A stretch of DNA of 64,000 bases, from positions 62,001-126,000 of the forward strand of contig NZ_JNAM01000002.1 of the NCBI RefSeq assembly GCF_000759975.1. Reading direction: 5' to 3'. Both the position numbers and the translations under genes were made by a program. Under the pieces are notes generated by a model. That model searched no databases, was not told the origin of the DNA, and saw only the letters and a program-made list of their open reading frames with translations. The first letter of the stretch is position 1, and each line of letters begins with the position of its first letter. This document shows positions 53,602-58,612 of the stretch, piece after piece. Source of the DNA: Prochlorococcus marinus str. MIT 9302. GTDB taxonomy: Bacteria > Cyanobacteriota > Cyanobacteriia > PCC-6307 > Cyanobiaceae.

Positions 53602-53650
53602 ACTTTTGACTTGTCATAAGGCACTGTAAAGAGCTAAATTCATTTTATAT

Positions 53651-53722
<72 letters not shown>

Positions 53723-53748
53723 TTCCTTAACAAAATCAAGAACAATCA

Positions 53749-53773: not shown

Positions 53774-53869
53774 GTGACTATAACTGGAGTTAGAGGAGAA
53801 ATAGATATTCAGTACATTCCAATAATAACCATAAAATTTGGATATAAAACCCTAAATTTTTGAAAAAAA

Positions 53870-53883
53870 GTTAGTGTAAAGTT
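53870..53883. repeat. GTTAGTGTAAAGTT, downstream copy beside the helicase gene
   Basis: An exact copy of the 14 bases at 57064-57077. It lies just past the helicase stop, while the other copy lies in its promoter region, so the two bracket the gene in direct orientation. Confidence 0.8.
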
Positions 53884-53892
53884 TTCTTAAAG

Positions 53893-56800
53893 TTAATCTC
53901 TTACTTTCCATTTGAATTGGACTTTTTCTAATAGTTCTTTTCTCTCTTGGGACAATGATCCATTCTTAAAATCTTTTCTTTGAGTTCTAACCCAAATTCC
54001 TAACGATCCCTCTTTTACTGGTACTAAAGTATGCCCGTTAGTTTGAAAATATGCTTCGAGTTCTTTATATCCATCTCTCCATTGCTGTTCATTCATTATC
54101 CAAACAAAATTTAGTTTCTCCAGTAAATCTATTCTTTCTTTAGATATTTTACCCTTCTTATAATCTTGTCTTTGAATATGACACCAATTAAATAATGCAC
54201 CTTTATTTTTAGGAACTGATGTATGACCCTCCTTTTCAAAATATTCTTTCAGTTGTGTATAACTACTATTCCATTGATTCGCTCTAGGATCCCATTCAAA
54301 ATTCAGTTCTTCCAAAAGAGCGATTTTTTCCTTTGATAATCTACCTTTTTTAAAATATAACCTTTGATTAACACACCAAATCCCTAAAGAACCATGTTTT
54401 CTTGGAACAGATGAATGACCCTCCTTTTCAAAATATTCCTTAATTTGTTCATAACTATCATTCCATTGATATGCTCGAGGATCCCAAATAAAATTTAGTT
54501 CTTCCAATAATTCTATTTTCTTCTGGGATAAACTTCCATTGGTATAGTTTTGCCTTTGACCTCTGCACCAATCTCCTAAAGTAGATGCTCTTGATGCAAT
54601 AGATGAATGCCCTTCCTTTTCAAAGTATTTTTTAAGTTGTTTATAACTTTCATTCCATTGATTCTCTAAAGGATCCCAAATAAAATTCAGTTCTTCTAAT
54701 AAACCTATTTTCTTTTGAGGTAAAGCACCTTTTTTTTTAAATTGTCTTTGTTTAGAACACCAACTACCTAAAGGTGACTCTTTCGGCGAAATTGAAGTAT
54801 GCTTCTCCTTTTCAAAGTATTTTTTAAGTTGTTTATAACTTTCATTCCATTGCTTCTCTACAGGATCCCAAACGAAATTAAGTTCTTCTAATAAACCTAT
54901 TTTCTCTTGGGATAATGTATTCTTTTTTTTATTTTGCCTTTGTTTAGAACACCAATCACCCAGTTTTTTGTCTTTTTGTGGCACTACGGTATGTCCTTCT
55001 TTTTGAAAAAAATATTTTAATTCACCATATTTTTCAAACCAATCTTCTGATGAATTTTCAATCAAAAATGTTTGAATGGATCTTGAGAATTTTGTGGAAA
55101 TTTTTTCAGGAATATCAAAAATAAATTTCTCTAAATTCTCCTCATTAAAATTTATTTTTCTTTTAAAACCTTTATCGATTCTTAACTTATCTATACATTC
55201 CATTAATGAATCATCTTGAGATTTTAGTGCTAATACTATTTGCCAGACTTTCTTGAAATTACTCAATAAAATTGCTTCATCTAAACTTTCATTTTCGGAA
55301 ATATATATTGGAATTACTATTGTCCCTTTAGATTTATCATGACTTTTGCGTATTGCTCTCCCAACTGCCTGAATAATATCAATTTGACTTTGCTTTGGAT
55401 TAATAAATGCGATTCCACTCAATGAAGGAACATCTACCCCTTCTGATAAACATCTTGCATTTGTAAGAATTCTTAGTTCATTAACCTTCAAATTTTTTAA
55501 TTCAAATAATTTTTGATTTCTTTCTGAAGTTTTCATTGCTCCAGAGATATGTTCACAATTTATTTGTTCTAATGGTAAATCAGATTTATCTATACAAGAA
55601 ATAACTTGATCAAAACTGGTTGCAAAATCTTTTGCATTTTTAATTCTGCTATGAAAAGTAATTACTCTTTTAAGACCATAATCTTTAATTGCTTTTGTAA
55701 CCGCAATTTGAGAAGCAATTGTTTCAGCGTCTGATATTGTTTCATCAGAAATTTTGATTAATGATCGATTTACTATTTTTTGTTTGATCATTTCATCATC
55801 AACACCAACTACAACTACTTGATAATCAGAAAGAAGATCTCTTTGAATTGCTTCGGAAAATTTCAGTTCATAAAAAATTTCACCAAATACCGAGTGATCA
55901 TCCATTGATGCAACTTCAAAATCCATATCAAGAGATTTTGTTTTTATTTGTTTGGAAAGAATTCTTGGAGTTGCAGTAAAAAATAATCTTTTAAATGATT
56001 TGATTTTGTTCTCATCTAATACAGATCCAAAAGCATCTGAGACCCTCCCTGCACAACGATGTGCCTCATCTGCAATTACTAAATCAAAATCACTTGTATC
56101 ATGATGTTCTTGTGCCTCAACAATTAATTGTGCTGATTGATAAGTTGCGAAAACAACTTTGGAACCGCTTTCATCAAGAAAATTTTTAATCTCTAACGTT
56201 TCGCTTGTTACTGGAACGCCAATTTCAGAAGTATTAGAAATCCATTGATCTTCTGATTTATCTCTAGCAACTGATTTATCAGAACAAACACAAATCCATT
56301 TAAAAGGGTGGTTTGCTTCCTTATTCCATTCTTTCAGAATTTGAGATAGAAGACTCAAAGATGGTACTAAAACTAAAACTTGCTCTGCTTTGATTCGTTC
56401 TTTAATCCATAAAGATGTAAGTGTTTTGCCTGTTCCACACGCCATCAGAACTTGTCCACGATCCGCAGTCTTTAATCCTTCAGATACTTTTTCAATTGCT
56501 TCGATTTGATGAGTTCTAGGGTTTTTTTTTGATTTTCTTTTTCCTTGATTAAGGTCTTCTATCGAAGATGGGAATTCAATTTCAGATTGTCTGAACTGTT
56601 CTAATAAAAAACATACAACTTGCTTCTCCTGGCGATGAATTACCTGTTGAGCATTCTTTCCAATGCCATCTGTACTTGCGATTAATAATCTTCCATCTAT
56701 TTTTGAGTCATTTGATTCACTTAAAAAACTATCTATCTCAGACTTTTTAATATCATTATTTGGTGAGATACATTTTGATTGAACTGCCCAAGTATTTCCA

Positions 56801-57000
56801 TTTTTATGAGTAAAGATCAGGTCGACTCCGCAATCTGCACCCCATCTCTTGGGATATTCATTCCATAACCAAACTTCATCAACCTGACTCGCCCAAGTTG
56901 GATCAGTTTTTAAAAACCATTTAACGAATTTTTCAAACTGCTTTCCTCTAATCCTAATATCAGGATCTAAAGAATCATAAAATGCATCAAAGGTTGCCAA
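53893..57000 (-). CDS. Mrr-like nuclease / SF2 helicase / six helicase-associated (HA) repeats
   Basis: 1035 residues. Residues 14 to 140 are an Mrr-like PD-(D/E)XK nuclease: Glu23, Asp60 (GVD) and Gln74-Lys76 (QSK). Residues 160 to 600 are an SF2 helicase with Walker A ACGTGKT at 187, DEAH at 311, FFTATPRI, ARCLSEGVDVPSL and QAVGRAIRKS. From about residue 650 to the end are six HA repeats of about 66 residues, each with W-x2-SY, LG-x-WC-x2-QR and LLEELNF-x-W. The N-terminal pairing resembles type ISP and other restriction nuclease-helicases, but no methyltransferase or target-recognition domain is attached or nearby. It is likely a DNA translocase-nuclease acting in defence or element maintenance; this is inference. 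It is the only large gene of the island. Confidence 0.92.
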   Translation of the reverse strand: MATFDAFYDSLDPDIRIRGKQFEKFVKWFLKTDPTWASQVDEVWLWNEYPKRWGADCGVDLIFTHKNGNTWAVQSKCISPNNDIKKSEIDSFLSESNDSKIDGRLLIASTDGIGKNAQQVIHRQEKQVVCFLLEQFRQSEIEFPSSIEDLNQGKRKSKKNPRTHQIEAIEKVSEGLKTADRGQVLMACGTGKTLTSLWIKERIKAEQVLVLVPSLSLLSQILKEWNKEANHPFKWICVCSDKSVARDKSEDQWISNTSEIGVPVTSETLEIKNFLDESGSKVVFATYQSAQLIVEAQEHHDTSDFDLVIADEAHRCAGRVSDAFGSVLDENKIKSFKRLFFTATPRILSKQIKTKSLDMDFEVASMDDHSVFGEIFYELKFSEAIQRDLLSDYQVVVVGVDDEMIKQKIVNRSLIKISDETISDAETIASQIAVTKAIKDYGLKRVITFHSRIKNAKDFATSFDQVISCIDKSDLPLEQINCEHISGAMKTSERNQKLFELKNLKVNELRILTNARCLSEGVDVPSLSGIAFINPKQSQIDIIQAVGRAIRKSHDKSKGTIVIPIYISENESLDEAILLSNFKKVWQIVLALKSQDDSLMECIDKLRIDKGFKRKINFNEENLEKFIFDIPEKISTKFSRSIQTFLIENSSEDWFEKYGELKYFFQKEGHTVVPQKDKKLGDWCSKQRQNKKKNTLSQEKIGLLEELNFVWDPVEKQWNESYKQLKKYFEKEKHTSISPKESPLGSWCSKQRQFKKKGALPQKKIGLLEELNFIWDPLENQWNESYKQLKKYFEKEGHSSIASRASTLGDWCRGQRQNYTNGSLSQKKIELLEELNFIWDPRAYQWNDSYEQIKEYFEKEGHSSVPRKHGSLGIWCVNQRLYFKKGRLSKEKIALLEELNFEWDPRANQWNSSYTQLKEYFEKEGHTSVPKNKGALFNWCHIQRQDYKKGKISKERIDLLEKLNFVWIMNEQQWRDGYKELEAYFQTNGHTLVPVKEGSLGIWVRTQRKDFKNGSLSQERKELLEKVQFKWKVRD
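53896..55056 (-). repeat. Six tandem ~200-bp coding repeats (HA domains)
   Basis: DNA units of about 198 to 201 bases encode the six HA domains. Units 2 to 5 are the most alike (NESYKQLKKYFEKE, LNFIWDP recur), while units 1 and 6 are more diverged, so the inner units look like recent duplications. HA domains (PF03457 type) are small three-helix modules thought to bind DNA. Confidence 0.88.
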
Positions 57001-57063: not shown

Positions 57064-57084
57064 GTTAGTGTAAAGTTAGTGTAA
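57064..57084. promoter_or_regulatory. Tandem GTTAGTGTAA repeats upstream of the helicase gene
   Basis: GTTAGTGTAA occurs twice with an 11-base step (57064 and 57075), about 65 bases upstream of the helicase start, and a third time at 53870 downstream of the gene. On the gene's own strand the units read TTACACTAAC. Between them and the start codon lies TATATT, a possible -10. A binding site for a regulator, perhaps the protein itself, is inferred. Confidence 0.5.
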
Positions 57085-57143: not shown

Positions 57144-57166
57144 GTTCGAAAACCGCCCGGGGAGTT
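57144..57166 (+). repeat. att-like repeat copy B
   Basis: GTTCGAA, AA, then CCGCCCGGGGAGTT, 21 of 23 identical to the tRNA-Asn 3' end. No tRNA 5' part is present, so it is not a tRNA gene. A hairpin terminator follows at 57190. It divides the island into two parts. Confidence 0.9.
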
Positions 57167-57189
57167 TTAAAGTCTCGAAAAGTCATGCA

Positions 57190-57217
57190 AAGTCACCTAA
57201 AAGGTGACTTTTTTTTG
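57190..57217 (+). terminator. Terminator behind att copy B
   Basis: AGTCACCT and AGGTGACT form a perfect 8-bp stem with loop AAA, followed by a run of eight T. The stem sequence is shared with the terminator behind copy C, and the surrounding DNA is homologous too. It probably once ended the tRNA-Asn transcript. Confidence 0.8.
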
Positions 57218-57249
57218 CCTATGACTACCTTCTCAATGAAAAATGTCTA

Positions 57250-57285
57250 GACGAATAATGACACTATAGTGCAATTTTATTCGTC
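57250..57285. repeat. 36-bp dyad: GACGAATAA...TTATTCGTC around CACTATAGTG
   Basis: Outer arms of nine bases (57250-57258 and 57277-57285) are perfectly inverted, and the 10-bp palindrome CACTATAGTG (57262-57271) lies inside. ATTCGTCC from the right arm recurs at 57322 and 58050. It is a strong candidate protein-binding site or element end. Confidence 0.6.
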
Positions 57286-57372
57286 CAGTATTAGTCTTTT
57301 TATTCATCTTTTAGTAAAAAAATTCGTCCAGATTTTTAGTCACTATTCCTGCTATTTCTCACGTTTTTATCC

Positions 57373-57555
57373 TCAGTCGCAATAAATTAAACAATTCTGA
57401 TTAGTCGGATGTTTTCTACATTCCTTAACCCAAAAGTTTTGAAACTCAGAATTACATTTTTCTAGTTCTTGTGGAGTCTCATTCAAGTTTAACCCTGCAT
57501 AATTAAATGCAGTTAGGTATCTTGGAAGGACATTGAATTGATTGAATAGTTTCAT
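57373..57555 (-). CDS. Orphan small protein with four Cys
   Basis: 60 residues (MKLFNQFNVLPRYLTAFNYA to LIYCD). The AGGAGGT Shine-Dalgarno three bases before the ATG is the strongest seen in this window and supports translation. Four Cys lie in the last 30 residues (EKCNSE, KECRKH, QNCLIYCD), perhaps forming disulfides or a metal site. No signal peptide is clear. No family recognised. It is cargo of island segment 2. Confidence 0.6.
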   Translation of the reverse strand: MKLFNQFNVLPRYLTAFNYAGLNLNETPQELEKCNSEFQNFWVKECRKHPTNQNCLIYCD

Positions 57556-57716
57556 AAGACCTCCTAGATCTATATCTATATTGTCCTCCTATTAACTTGA
57601 AATTCATAGAGTATTATTACCCGAGTAGAAGTGCTTTAAGGTATCATCAAGAATTTCCATAAAAAATAAACTATCATTTATAGAATTAATGAAAAGAAAA
57701 TAATCCTTGATATTTA

Positions 57717-58034
57717 ATGTTGCGACTTCTTCCTCTACCGATTTTTATTTGCATTTATCTATTCTCTTGGTGGAGATGTAAAAAAAATATTATCGCTAGT
57801 GATCAGCAACTAAAACCATGCATTGATTGGGCATATGTAAAAAATTTACCGATCCCACCAAAACCTTTATTTATCGAGTTTTATATTGTTTATGTTTCTT
57901 CTTTTTTTAAATTCCCCTTTGGGATAATTGTTCAACAACTACCTTTCTCAAAGAAAGTAAGATATTACGAAAGAGAAATGAAATTAATATTTGATAAATG
58001 GAATTTAGAAAAAATTAAAAAAATAAAAAACTAA
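57717..58034 (+). CDS. Orphan protein with N-terminal membrane helix
   Basis: 105 residues. LRLLPLPIFICIYLFSWW is a membrane helix or uncleaved signal, followed by RCKKN. A second hydrophobic stretch (FIEFYIVYVSSFFKFPFGIIV) lies at residues 54 to 75, and the tail is basic and helical (FDKWNLEKIKKIKN). The family is unknown. It ends just before ATTCGTC repeats and att copy C. Confidence 0.5.
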   Translation: MLRLLPLPIFICIYLFSWWRCKKNIIASDQQLKPCIDWAYVKNLPIPPKPLFIEFYIVYVSSFFKFPFGIIVQQLPFSKKVRYYEREMKLIFDKWNLEKIKKIKN

Positions 58035-58035
58035 T

Positions 58036-58058
58036 TTATTCGTCAAAATATTCGTCCA
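58036..58058. repeat. ATTCGTC repeats at the right end of segment 2
   Basis: TTATTCGTC (58036-58044) and ATTCGTCCA (58050-58058) lie 13 bases apart. The same motif is at 57279, 57322 and, inverted, at 57250, and again at 58264. Clusters thus sit at both ends of segment 2. Confidence 0.6.
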
Positions 58059-58076
58059 TTTTCTTATTTCTTTCAT

Positions 58077-58092
58077 ATATGTCATGACATAT
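58077..58092. repeat. 16-bp palindrome ATATGTCATGACATAT before att copy C
   Basis: Perfectly self-complementary. It is followed within five bases by TGTCATATCAAGACATA, so TGTC/GACA half-sites recur four times in 35 bases, directly before copy C. This resembles arm-type binding sites of a recombinase or a repressor operator. Its role is inferred. Confidence 0.5.
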
Positions 58093-58128
58093 CGTGTCAT
58101 ATCAAGACATATTTTGTTTAATGCTCGA

Positions 58129-58142
58129 CCGCCCGGGGAGTT
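58129..58142 (+). repeat. att-like repeat copy C
   Basis: CCGCCCGGGGAGTT, identical to the cores of copies A and B. The preceding CTCGA is a decayed form of TTCGAA. A terminator with the copy-B stem follows. This distal copy marks the far end of the two-step insertion. Confidence 0.88.
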
Positions 58143-58164
58143 CTTAAGTCTCGAAAATTCATGC

Positions 58165-58188
58165 AAAGTCACCTTTTTGGTGACTTTT
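58165..58188 (+). terminator. Terminator behind att copy C
   Basis: AAAGTCACC and GGTGACTTT form a 9-bp stem with a loop of five T, followed by TTTGT. It is homologous to the hairpin at 57190. Confidence 0.75.
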
Positions 58189-58317
58189 GTGCATATGAAT
58201 ACCTTCTTAAGAAAAAATATGTATGTAAATTTTTGAAATTATAATATGGTTATATTGGTCCAGTATTCGTCTTTTGGTAATAATATCCTTCCAAATTTTG
58301 CTCACTTAATAAGAGAT

Positions 58318-58414
58318 AAAAAAAAAGACCCCTATTTTTAGAGATCTTTTTCTGGTTTGACCGAATCAAGTGTTTCCTTGTTTCCACTGTTTCAGTAAAA
58401 CCACTCCTTCACAC
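58318..58414 (-). ncRNA. Yfr2-family-like small RNA
   Basis: Read on the minus strand, the first hairpin is an AGTG/CACT stem whose loop region contains GGAAACA twice (complement at 58379-58385 and 58371-58377). Repeated GGAAACA in a loop is the hallmark of the abundant cyanobacterial Yfr2-5 RNAs. A second small hairpin (GGT/ACC) follows, then a terminator, AAAAAGATCTCTA paired with TAGGGGTCTTTTT and a T run. A TATATT box at 58426-58421 places the 5' end near 58414, giving about 97 nt, the usual size. Family by motif recall, ends approximate. Confidence 0.7.
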
Positions 58415-58511
58415 AAATTGAATATATGCCATATATTGCTTTTCCGTGGAAAGGAAAAATGTAATGTTACTAAACTGTCATATGTGCCAGTTTAGCTTTA
58501 AATGATTTATG

Positions 58512-58612
58512 GCAATAAAAAACACCCTAATTTAGAGAAAAGAGTGTTTACTGATCAGAAATTAGTGTGTGAGGCGTTTCTGATATTTTTAATATCTATG
58601 ATTGCAGTGCTT
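58512..58612 (-). ncRNA. Possible second small RNA with CCUCACACAC loop
   Basis: Minus strand. Hairpin one is GATATT/AATATC. Hairpin two is an 8-bp perfect stem ATCAGAAA/TTTCTGAT (58554-58561 and 58577-58584) with a 15-base loop containing CCTCACACAC. The last hairpin AAACACTCT/AGGGTGTTT (58519-58549, one mismatch) is followed by a T run, a good terminator. A TAATCT box about 15 bases upstream of the proposed 5' end could be a -10. The loop resembles the CUCCUCACAC core of Yfr1, but the stems and place differ. The 5' end is a guess. Confidence 0.4.

What the first reader, a model, noticed from the sequence alone, without database searches (positions are those of the whole stretch)
53893..57000. 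Mrr nuclease-SF2 helicase with six HA repeats and no methyltransferase, alone in a tRNA island
Seen: nuclease residues Glu23, Asp60 and Gln74-x-Lys76, DEAH helicase motifs, six HA units. Known: type ISP and related restriction enzymes join an Mrr-like nuclease to a helicase, but add a methyltransferase and target-recognition domain. Here the place of these is taken by HA repeats, which are thought to bind DNA. Inference: a single-gene anti-phage or element-control system in which an HA array gives DNA specificity and self is spared without methylation.
Basis: partly seen in the sequence, partly recalled or inferred. Interest (0 to 1): 0.8.

Follow-up and report, generated by a model that had tools for sequence, protein, structure and literature searches.

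The report
Nuclease-motor with fast-changing recognition repeats
A small mobile element in an ocean cyanobacterium carries one gene for a DNA-cutting motor protein whose tail of repeated units changes much faster than the rest, at the places where a DNA reader would touch its target, which suggests a restriction enzyme that works without the usual protective methylation.

Summary
The 1035-aa gene at 53893-57000 (-) joins an Mrr-type nuclease and SF2 motor, related to type ISP enzymes (LlaBIII, E 5e-96), to six HA units, without coupler, methyltransferase or ISP specificity domain. It is the only gene of a 3.4-kb unit bounded by copies of the tRNA-Asn 3' end; 6 of 18 relatives read there show an empty site.

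In 24 homologues catalytic residues are kept. Arrays diverge far faster than the motor (91% motor, 44% array in one pair). Inside units, variation sits on one face of helix 2 plus position 22 (positions 22, 29, 32, 33, 36): dN is 1.73 times dS there, w 0.29 elsewhere. The same positions stand out in actinobacterial plasmid HA proteins (1.74 against 0.41). These sites are rich in R, T, Q, K, S, N and poor in acid.

Best reading: a mobile one-gene restriction-like system whose HA array is a modular, diversifying DNA reader. DNA binding and anti-phage activity are untested. A methyltransferase (three families searched) lies within 10 kb in 4 of 24, once in an Mza-like operon; 9 of 24 have a flank shorter than 10 kb. 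My idea that HA reads the element's end repeats failed.

The parts
53893..57000 (-). Mrr nuclease - SF2 motor - 6x HA protein, 1035 aa, TTG start
56551..56961 (-). Mrr-type nuclease domain (aa 14-150; E23, D60, Q74-x-K76)
   Evidence: Pfam Mrr_cat_2; alignment to LlaBIII; kept in 24 of 24 HA homologues
55156..56532 (-). SF2 helicase-like motor (aa 157-615; Walker A, DEAH, TAT, QAVGRAIR)
53896..55041 (-). HA array, six units of 62-64 aa (aa 654-1035); hypervariable unit positions 22, 29, 32, 33, 36
   Evidence: units 2-4 modelled with pLDDT 93, three helices each
53650..53723 (+). tRNA-Asn (GTT), target of the element
53702..53724 (+). tRNA 3' end, left att-like site
   Evidence: repeat D8; junction comparison
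57144..57166 (+). tRNA-end copy (91% over 23 bases), right end of the nuclease unit and left end of unit 2
58129..58142 (+). third tRNA-end core copy, right end of unit 2
57167..58142 (.). second tandem unit (small ORFs 57373-57555 and 57717-58034), 96.4% identical over 978 bases to a unit found without the nuclease unit in genome G475
57064..57084 (.). iteron-like repeats GTTAGTGTAA before the gene start
53869..53883 (.). copy of the same iteron after the stop codon
   Evidence: (D15)

Best explanation
A mobile one-gene restriction-like system derived from the nuclease-motor half of type ISP enzymes. The HA array is a modular DNA reader: each 64-aa unit presents a variable face of helix 2. 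Target binding starts ATP-driven translocation, and the Mrr nuclease cuts when motors stall or converge, as in type ISP enzymes. Self DNA is spared because the target is rare or absent in the host rather than methylated. The array is changed by unit duplication, loss and exchange, following changing phages or rival elements. Shown: architecture, motif conservation, mobility context, array turnover and excess amino-acid change at the helix-2 face. Inferred: DNA reading, cleavage mechanism, defence role, self-avoidance.
For: Nuclease and motor match LlaBIII over aa 14-615, E 5e-96; nuclease residues kept in 24 of 24, motor motifs kept but for GSGKT in L073, DESH in L077 and small changes in motif VI; N-part dN/dS 0.09-0.17 in four pairs. 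Array divergence outruns the motor: motor/array-best identity 95/69, 91/44, 88/53 and 83/54 in the four closest pairs (in the 91/44 pair one array is cut by a contig end, but its best single unit match is 47%), with a nucleotide drop near aa 655. Hypervariable positions 22, 29, 32, 33, 36: dN/whole-unit dS 1.73, rest w 0.29, bootstrap over 10 arrays 1.36-2.13 against 0.24-0.42. The same positions, fixed beforehand, in plasmid HA proteins: 1.74 against 0.41 in 28 pairs from 5 of 8 proteins, 15 pairs from one; variability profiles agree, Spearman 0.85. Composition of these sites R/T/Q/K/S/N with about 7% acid; ten other variable sites about 31% acid. Sporadic: 31 of 400 and 24 of 266 genomes at E 1e-20, other nuclease-motor types included. 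One homologue follows MzaE by two bases in a MzaC-MzaD-MzaE row with a C5 methyltransferase and Vsr nearby.
Against: No experiment shows HA binding DNA. Structure searches of the 3-unit model gave no significant match. Unit pairs within an array are not independent, and 52 of the 106 cyanobacterial pairs come from L068; without L068 and L069 the ratio is 1.53. With looser plasmid pairs (50% identity or more) it falls to 1.18 (own w 0.90, rest 0.37), and the held-out top-8 test in cyanobacteria gave 0.97 against 0.30. The window's own array has only 3 close pairs (ratio 1.09). Only one homologue is shown to lie in a recognised defence operon, and none of ten window neighbours is a convincing defence gene. 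9 of 20 arrays are not more alike inside than to their nearest other array. Two Rhodococcus plasmid copies keep the array but have lost catalytic motifs.
Confidence: 0.5

Rival explanations
1. Modification-dependent (type IV-like) restriction: the HA array reads modified phage or foreign DNA, so host DNA is spared without a methyltransferase, as SauUSI does with a nuclease, SF2 motor and SRA reader.
For: Same nuclease-motor-reader layout without methyltransferase as SauUSI (passages of PMC7913695); PADLOC mREase_IV matches the motor (E 7.6e-9).
Against: A reader of one modified base would not be expected to need 2-11 diversifying units (inference); C5 methyltransferases occur near 3 homologues, which is awkward for a 5mC-dependent cutter.
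Confidence: 0.15
2. The HA array senses a protein or other ligand of phages or elements (as repeat arrays of Avs sensors do, recalled), and the motor-nuclease then acts on DNA with little sequence specificity.
For: Repeat arrays with diversifying surface positions also fit protein recognition; Foldseek found no significant match to a DNA-binding fold.
Against: Variable face is rich in R/T/Q/K/S/N and poor in acid and aromatics; net charge positive in 19 of 20 arrays.
Confidence: 0.12
3. An element-maintenance protein: a nuclease-helicase that binds repeats at the ends of its own element for excision, replication or copy control, like the telomere-linked HA helicases of Streptomyces (TtrA, recalled).
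For: Iteron-like repeats flank the gene in several elements; HA helicases occur on linear plasmids of actinobacteria.
Against: Genome G463 (L139) has the same left end (89.7% over 165 bases) and the same iterons with another cargo and no HA gene; L067 and L078 share ATCCCACAAC iterons but have 8 and 2 HA units.
Confidence: 0.13

Closest known systems
Type ISP restriction-modification enzymes (LlaBIII, LlaGI)
   Same: Mrr nuclease plus SF2 motor, aligned over aa 14-615; 1612-1643-aa relatives occur in the same family (L085, L086, L095), of which L085 was shown to have the ISP domains
   Different: No ISP_coupler, methyltransferase or Type_ISP_C; a variable HA array instead
SauUSI (type IV, modification-dependent)
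   Same: Single chain: nuclease, SF2 motor, C-terminal reader, no methyltransferase (passages of PMC7913695)
   Different: PLD nuclease and SRA reader there; Mrr nuclease and HA repeats here
HA-domain proteins of actinobacterial and Pseudomonas plasmids
   Same: HA arrays with the same hypervariable unit positions
   Different: Of 8 sampled, 4 start at the motor, 1 has HA units only, 3 (Rhodococcus) have the N-terminal part, of which only L149 keeps the motifs
Mza-type operons
   Same: A homologue (L083) follows MzaC-MzaD-MzaE
   Different: No Mza match among ten neighbours of the window gene
Tycheposons and other tRNA-targeted elements of Prochlorococcus
   Same: tRNA 3'-end copies bound small cargo units
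   Different: Unit of 3.4 kb with no recombinase of its own, against 4-200 kb with a tyrosine recombinase (passages of PMC10872708); membership not established

Membership tests
Type ISP restriction-modification enzyme | Mrr-family nuclease with catalytic residues | tested here: met
Type ISP restriction-modification enzyme | SF2 helicase-like ATPase | tested here: met
Type ISP restriction-modification enzyme | coupler, methyltransferase and DNA-recognition domain in the same chain (definition: abstract of PMC4666363 in the listing) | tested here: not met
   absent in window protein; the same kind of scan finds ISP_coupler and Type_ISP_C in L085
Type IV modification-dependent restriction | cleaves only modified DNA | not testable with these tools
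   -
Mza system | MzaC, MzaD, MzaE neighbours | tested here: not met
   none among ten window neighbours; met only for homologue L083
Tycheposon | bounded by tRNA 3'-end repeats | tested here: met
Tycheposon | own tyrosine recombinase | tested here: not met
   no PF00589 match on contig C2; the 4 matches in G000 lie on C9 and C10
Tycheposon | length 4-200 kb (passages of PMC10872708) | tested here: not met
   3.4 kb for the gene's unit
HA-domain proteins (PF03457) | HA units over Pfam cut-off | tested here: met
   310 bits against cut-off 28.4, 6 stretches

The most novel reading that the evidence does not exclude
HA units are a new class of tandem DNA-reading module with a residue code at unit positions 22, 29, 32, 33 and 36, and the Mrr-motor-HA protein is a natural programmable nuclease: the array spells a long target so rare that the host need not methylate itself, and mobile elements trade and rewrite arrays as protein-coded immunity against particular phages or rival elements.
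Probability: 0.3. Interest if true: 0.92.

Novelty: new variant of a known kind. Interest (0 to 1): 0.72.

Why it matters
If HA units read DNA, this gives a testable recognition code in a widespread but unexplained domain (792 plasmid records match this protein, 152 of them over at least 80% of its length), a restriction enzyme design without methylation, and a reason why such genes travel in very small marine elements. It would also offer a new modular DNA-binding scaffold.

Tried and rejected
Idea that the HA array reads the element's iterons: rejected because the same iterons and left end occur with other cargo and no HA gene (L139), and the same iterons occur with different arrays (L067, L078). 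Consistently adjacent methyltransferase: rejected for the three Pfam families searched (PF00145, PF01555, PF02384): within 10 kb in 4 of 24 (G300, G294, G482 C5 type; G374 an Eco57I-like 1114-aa protein). Other methyltransferase families were not searched. Weak PF02384 hits (20.2-20.4 bits, frames of 378-383 aa) within 10 kb in G524 and G475 were set aside as an RNA-methylase-like gene shared by several loci (recognised by eye). In 9 of the 24 (G000, G555, G449, G036, G383, G215, G228, G279, G482) at least one flank is shorter than 10 kb, so absence there is not proven.

Chance variation of HA sites: tested by held-out arrays and by a separate plasmid set. Foldseek and VIA searches of the 3-unit model were inconclusive: best Foldseek E 2.7 and best Z 3.1; a DUX4 homeodomain row (E 9.9) and a TetR row (Z 2.8) are of no weight. 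The full-length model was poor in the N-part (mean pLDDT 63) and was used only to see helices in the HA part. Phage records: 16 match parts of the protein, none over 80% of it; MT837289 was fetched and not used. Viral contigs gave 1 weak relative. PADLOC matches of the ABC-transporter gene (mad3 and others) and of the response regulator (SduA) near the tRNA were taken as shared ATPase and receiver domains.

Papers: PF03457 and helicase-associated domain (30 of 38 listed), and (10 of 19 listed; 8 of 22 listed), showed no title or abstract start on diversifying prokaryotic HA arrays; this is a statement about those listings only. No occurrence of Mza in PMC9122126, so the origin of that name is not cited.

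Rows dropped before counts: nuclease-only or broken fragments (L080, L094, L098, L099, L100), ISP-length enzymes, about 780-aa relatives without HA, L049 (no HA unit, cut by contig end) and L093 from the HA set; 4 of 24 HA homologues with fewer than 4 units (L074, L076, L077, L078) from the array statistics. L084 was kept although HA-coding sequence goes on after its stop, so its array is probably broken.

Full report
WHAT IS THERE. The ORF at 53893-57000 (-) is 1035 aa with a TTG start and is single copy in its genome. Pfam finds Mrr_cat_2, ResIII, Helicase_C and six HA units. Residues 14-615 align with the solved type ISP enzyme LlaBIII (E 5.3e-96); E23, D60, Q74, K76 fall on LlaBIII E38, D78, Q92, K94 (that D78 is catalytic is recalled). 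One HA unit matches an entry of the PDB, 2kta. No coupler, methyltransferase or ISP specificity domain is found, while Pfam finds coupler and specificity domain in a relative, L085.

THE ELEMENT. tRNA-Asn lies at 53650-53723. Its 3' end recurs at 57144-57166 (91% over 23 bases) and as a core at 58129-58142. Of 18 relatives read at this tRNA, six (L132, L133, L134, L137, L140, L143) have the same response-regulator gene 1.09-1.13 kb after the tRNA with no extra copy, an empty site; in three more (L131, L138, L148) no copy was seen but the regulator was not reached or not found; the other nine hold other inserts or a changed flank. In the window the distance is 6.05 kb. L081 shows the empty-site sequence resuming directly after its right copy. 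The window's second unit is 96.4% identical over 978 bases to a unit that stands without the nuclease unit in G475. So the gene is the only cargo of a 3.4-kb unit without recombinase; four PF00589 matches lie on other contigs (C9, C10) of the genome. In L081, L062 and L073 the gene stands at the same tRNA in the opposite orientation; L062 has an AlpA-like ORF beside it, and similar ORFs are seen by eye at L081 and L073.

HOMOLOGUES. 31 of 400 family genomes and 24 of 266 genus genomes match at E 1e-20; 15 of 292 phylum genomes match at E 1e-30. These counts include ISP-length enzymes and a roughly 780-aa type without HA. Over, 24 loci (window included) have the nuclease-motor and at least one HA unit. 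Units per protein, proteins cut by contig ends set aside, run from 2 (L077, L078, Pfam count) to 11 (L068). They lie at tRNA-Asn (4), near tRNA-Ser (L067, L077; L078 by an att remnant seen by eye), and some beside genes that I recognise by eye as argJ and guaA 3' ends. Nuclease residues are kept in 24 of 24; motor motifs too, but for GSGKT in L073, DESH in L077 and small changes in motif VI. A methyltransferase of three searched families lies within 10 kb in 4 of 24; 9 of 24 have a flank shorter than 10 kb.

DEFENCE CONTEXT. In L083 the gene starts two bases after an AIPR gene in the order Z1, DUF4420 (PD-(D/E)XK), AIPR, HA gene, with HTH-C5 methyltransferase and Vsr on the other strand. PADLOC names the first three MzaC (E 7.9e-103), MzaD and MzaE. 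Restriction neighbourhoods with C5 methylases, Vsr, SF2 helicases and AIPR were described in PMC2292703 (passages). In L087 a second nuclease-motor without HA stands divergently beside the HA gene. In L062 and L077 a C5 methyltransferase lies 3.5 and 1.6 kb away; in L062 it is in the fourth of the tandem units, the HA gene in the first. The window gene itself has no convincing defence neighbour among ten ORFs.

THE ARRAY EVOLVES APART FROM THE MOTOR. Among 20 arrays with at least 4 units (118 units; three, L064, L087 and L088, cut by contig ends; L062 with a stop noted; L084 probably broken), the closest motor pairs have motor identity 95, 91, 88 and 83%, while the mean best unit match is 69, 44, 53 and 54%. 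Using best matches overstates array likeness, so the gap is conservative. Nucleotide identity drops near aa 655: 92.2 to 60.4% in L063/L088 and 95.0 to 77.5% in L068/L069. Units inside an array are more alike than to the nearest other array in 11 of 20 arrays, which fits repeated duplication in part of them.

A VARIABLE FACE. Unit positions 32, 22, 29, 33, 37, 23, 24 and 36 vary most within arrays. Positions 29, 32, 33 and 36 lie on one face of helix 2 (unit residues 26-39 in a model with pLDDT 93; the face is read from the spacing, not from coordinates). In 106 within-array pairs with at least 60% identity, dN at 22, 29, 32, 33, 36 is 1.73 times the whole-unit dS (own w 1.40); elsewhere w is 0.29; bootstrap over 10 arrays gives 1.36-2.13 and 0.24-0.42; without L068 and L069 it is 1.53. 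Choosing the top 8 sites in half of the arrays and testing on the other half gave 0.97 (sd 0.20) against 0.30, so within cyanobacteria a ratio above 1 rests on the five-site set, which was chosen on the same data. The five sites, then fixed, were tested on 8 HA proteins from plasmids: 1.74 against 0.41 in 28 pairs from 5 of them (Rhodococcus and Tsukamurella; 15 pairs from one Tsukamurella protein), 1.18 against 0.37 in 63 looser pairs. The variability profiles of the two sets agree (Spearman 0.85). The five sites hold R, T, Q, K, S and N with about 7% acid; ten other variable sites hold about 31% acid and 2% R. This suits DNA reading better than protein binding, but is not proof.

MECHANISM. 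Type ISP enzymes bind an unmodified target, translocate, and cut where two converge head to head (PMC7049714 passages). With the same nuclease-motor, the HA protein most likely does likewise with HA as reader. Sparing self by rarity of a long target is inference; modification-dependence, as in SauUSI (PMC7913695 passages), is the main rival.

WHAT FAILED. Iterons beside these genes (GTTAGTGTAA in the window) looked like HA targets, but the same left end and iterons occur in L139 with other cargo, and L067 and L078 share iterons with unlike arrays.

VERDICT. New here, as far as the listed paper searches show: the array is a fast, diversifying module with defined variable positions. Function remains untested.

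Noticed in passing
L150 9001-12066 and L156 6001-8967 (Rhodococcus plasmids): Homologues that keep the HA array but have lost nuclease and motor motifs, with a mobF relaxase gene in the same stretch; possibly decoys or antagonists of active relatives.
   Followed up: partly
L139 609-1472 (genome G463): Element with the window's left end and iterons but a 288-aa cargo protein without clear Pfam match; sequence looks PD-(D/E)XK-like by eye.
   Followed up: partly
window 58142-58300: Sequence after the third tRNA-end copy resembles the start of unit 2, not the empty site: probably a remnant of a third unit.
   Followed up: no
window 58349-58584 (-): Cyano-1 and Yfr10 small RNAs just beyond the tandem units.
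   Followed up: no
L087 3092-5440, L089, L079, L090, L091, L092, L096, L097: A second family: about 780-aa Mrr nuclease-motor proteins without HA match (L087 and L089 scanned with Pfam); in G374 an N6_N4_Mtase gene lies a few kb from one of them.
   Followed up: partly
several elements (L062, L063, L067, L070, L073, L078, L088): Each element has its own short direct repeats of about 10-12 bp near its ends, different between most elements; reader of these repeats unknown.
   Followed up: partly
L084 before 7598 (gene on - strand): HA-coding sequence continues after the stop codon of this homologue, so its array is probably broken by a frameshift.
   Followed up: no
L080 2520-3158, L094 3-644: Nuclease-domain-only relatives (212-214 aa; L094 cut by contig end).
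   Followed up: no
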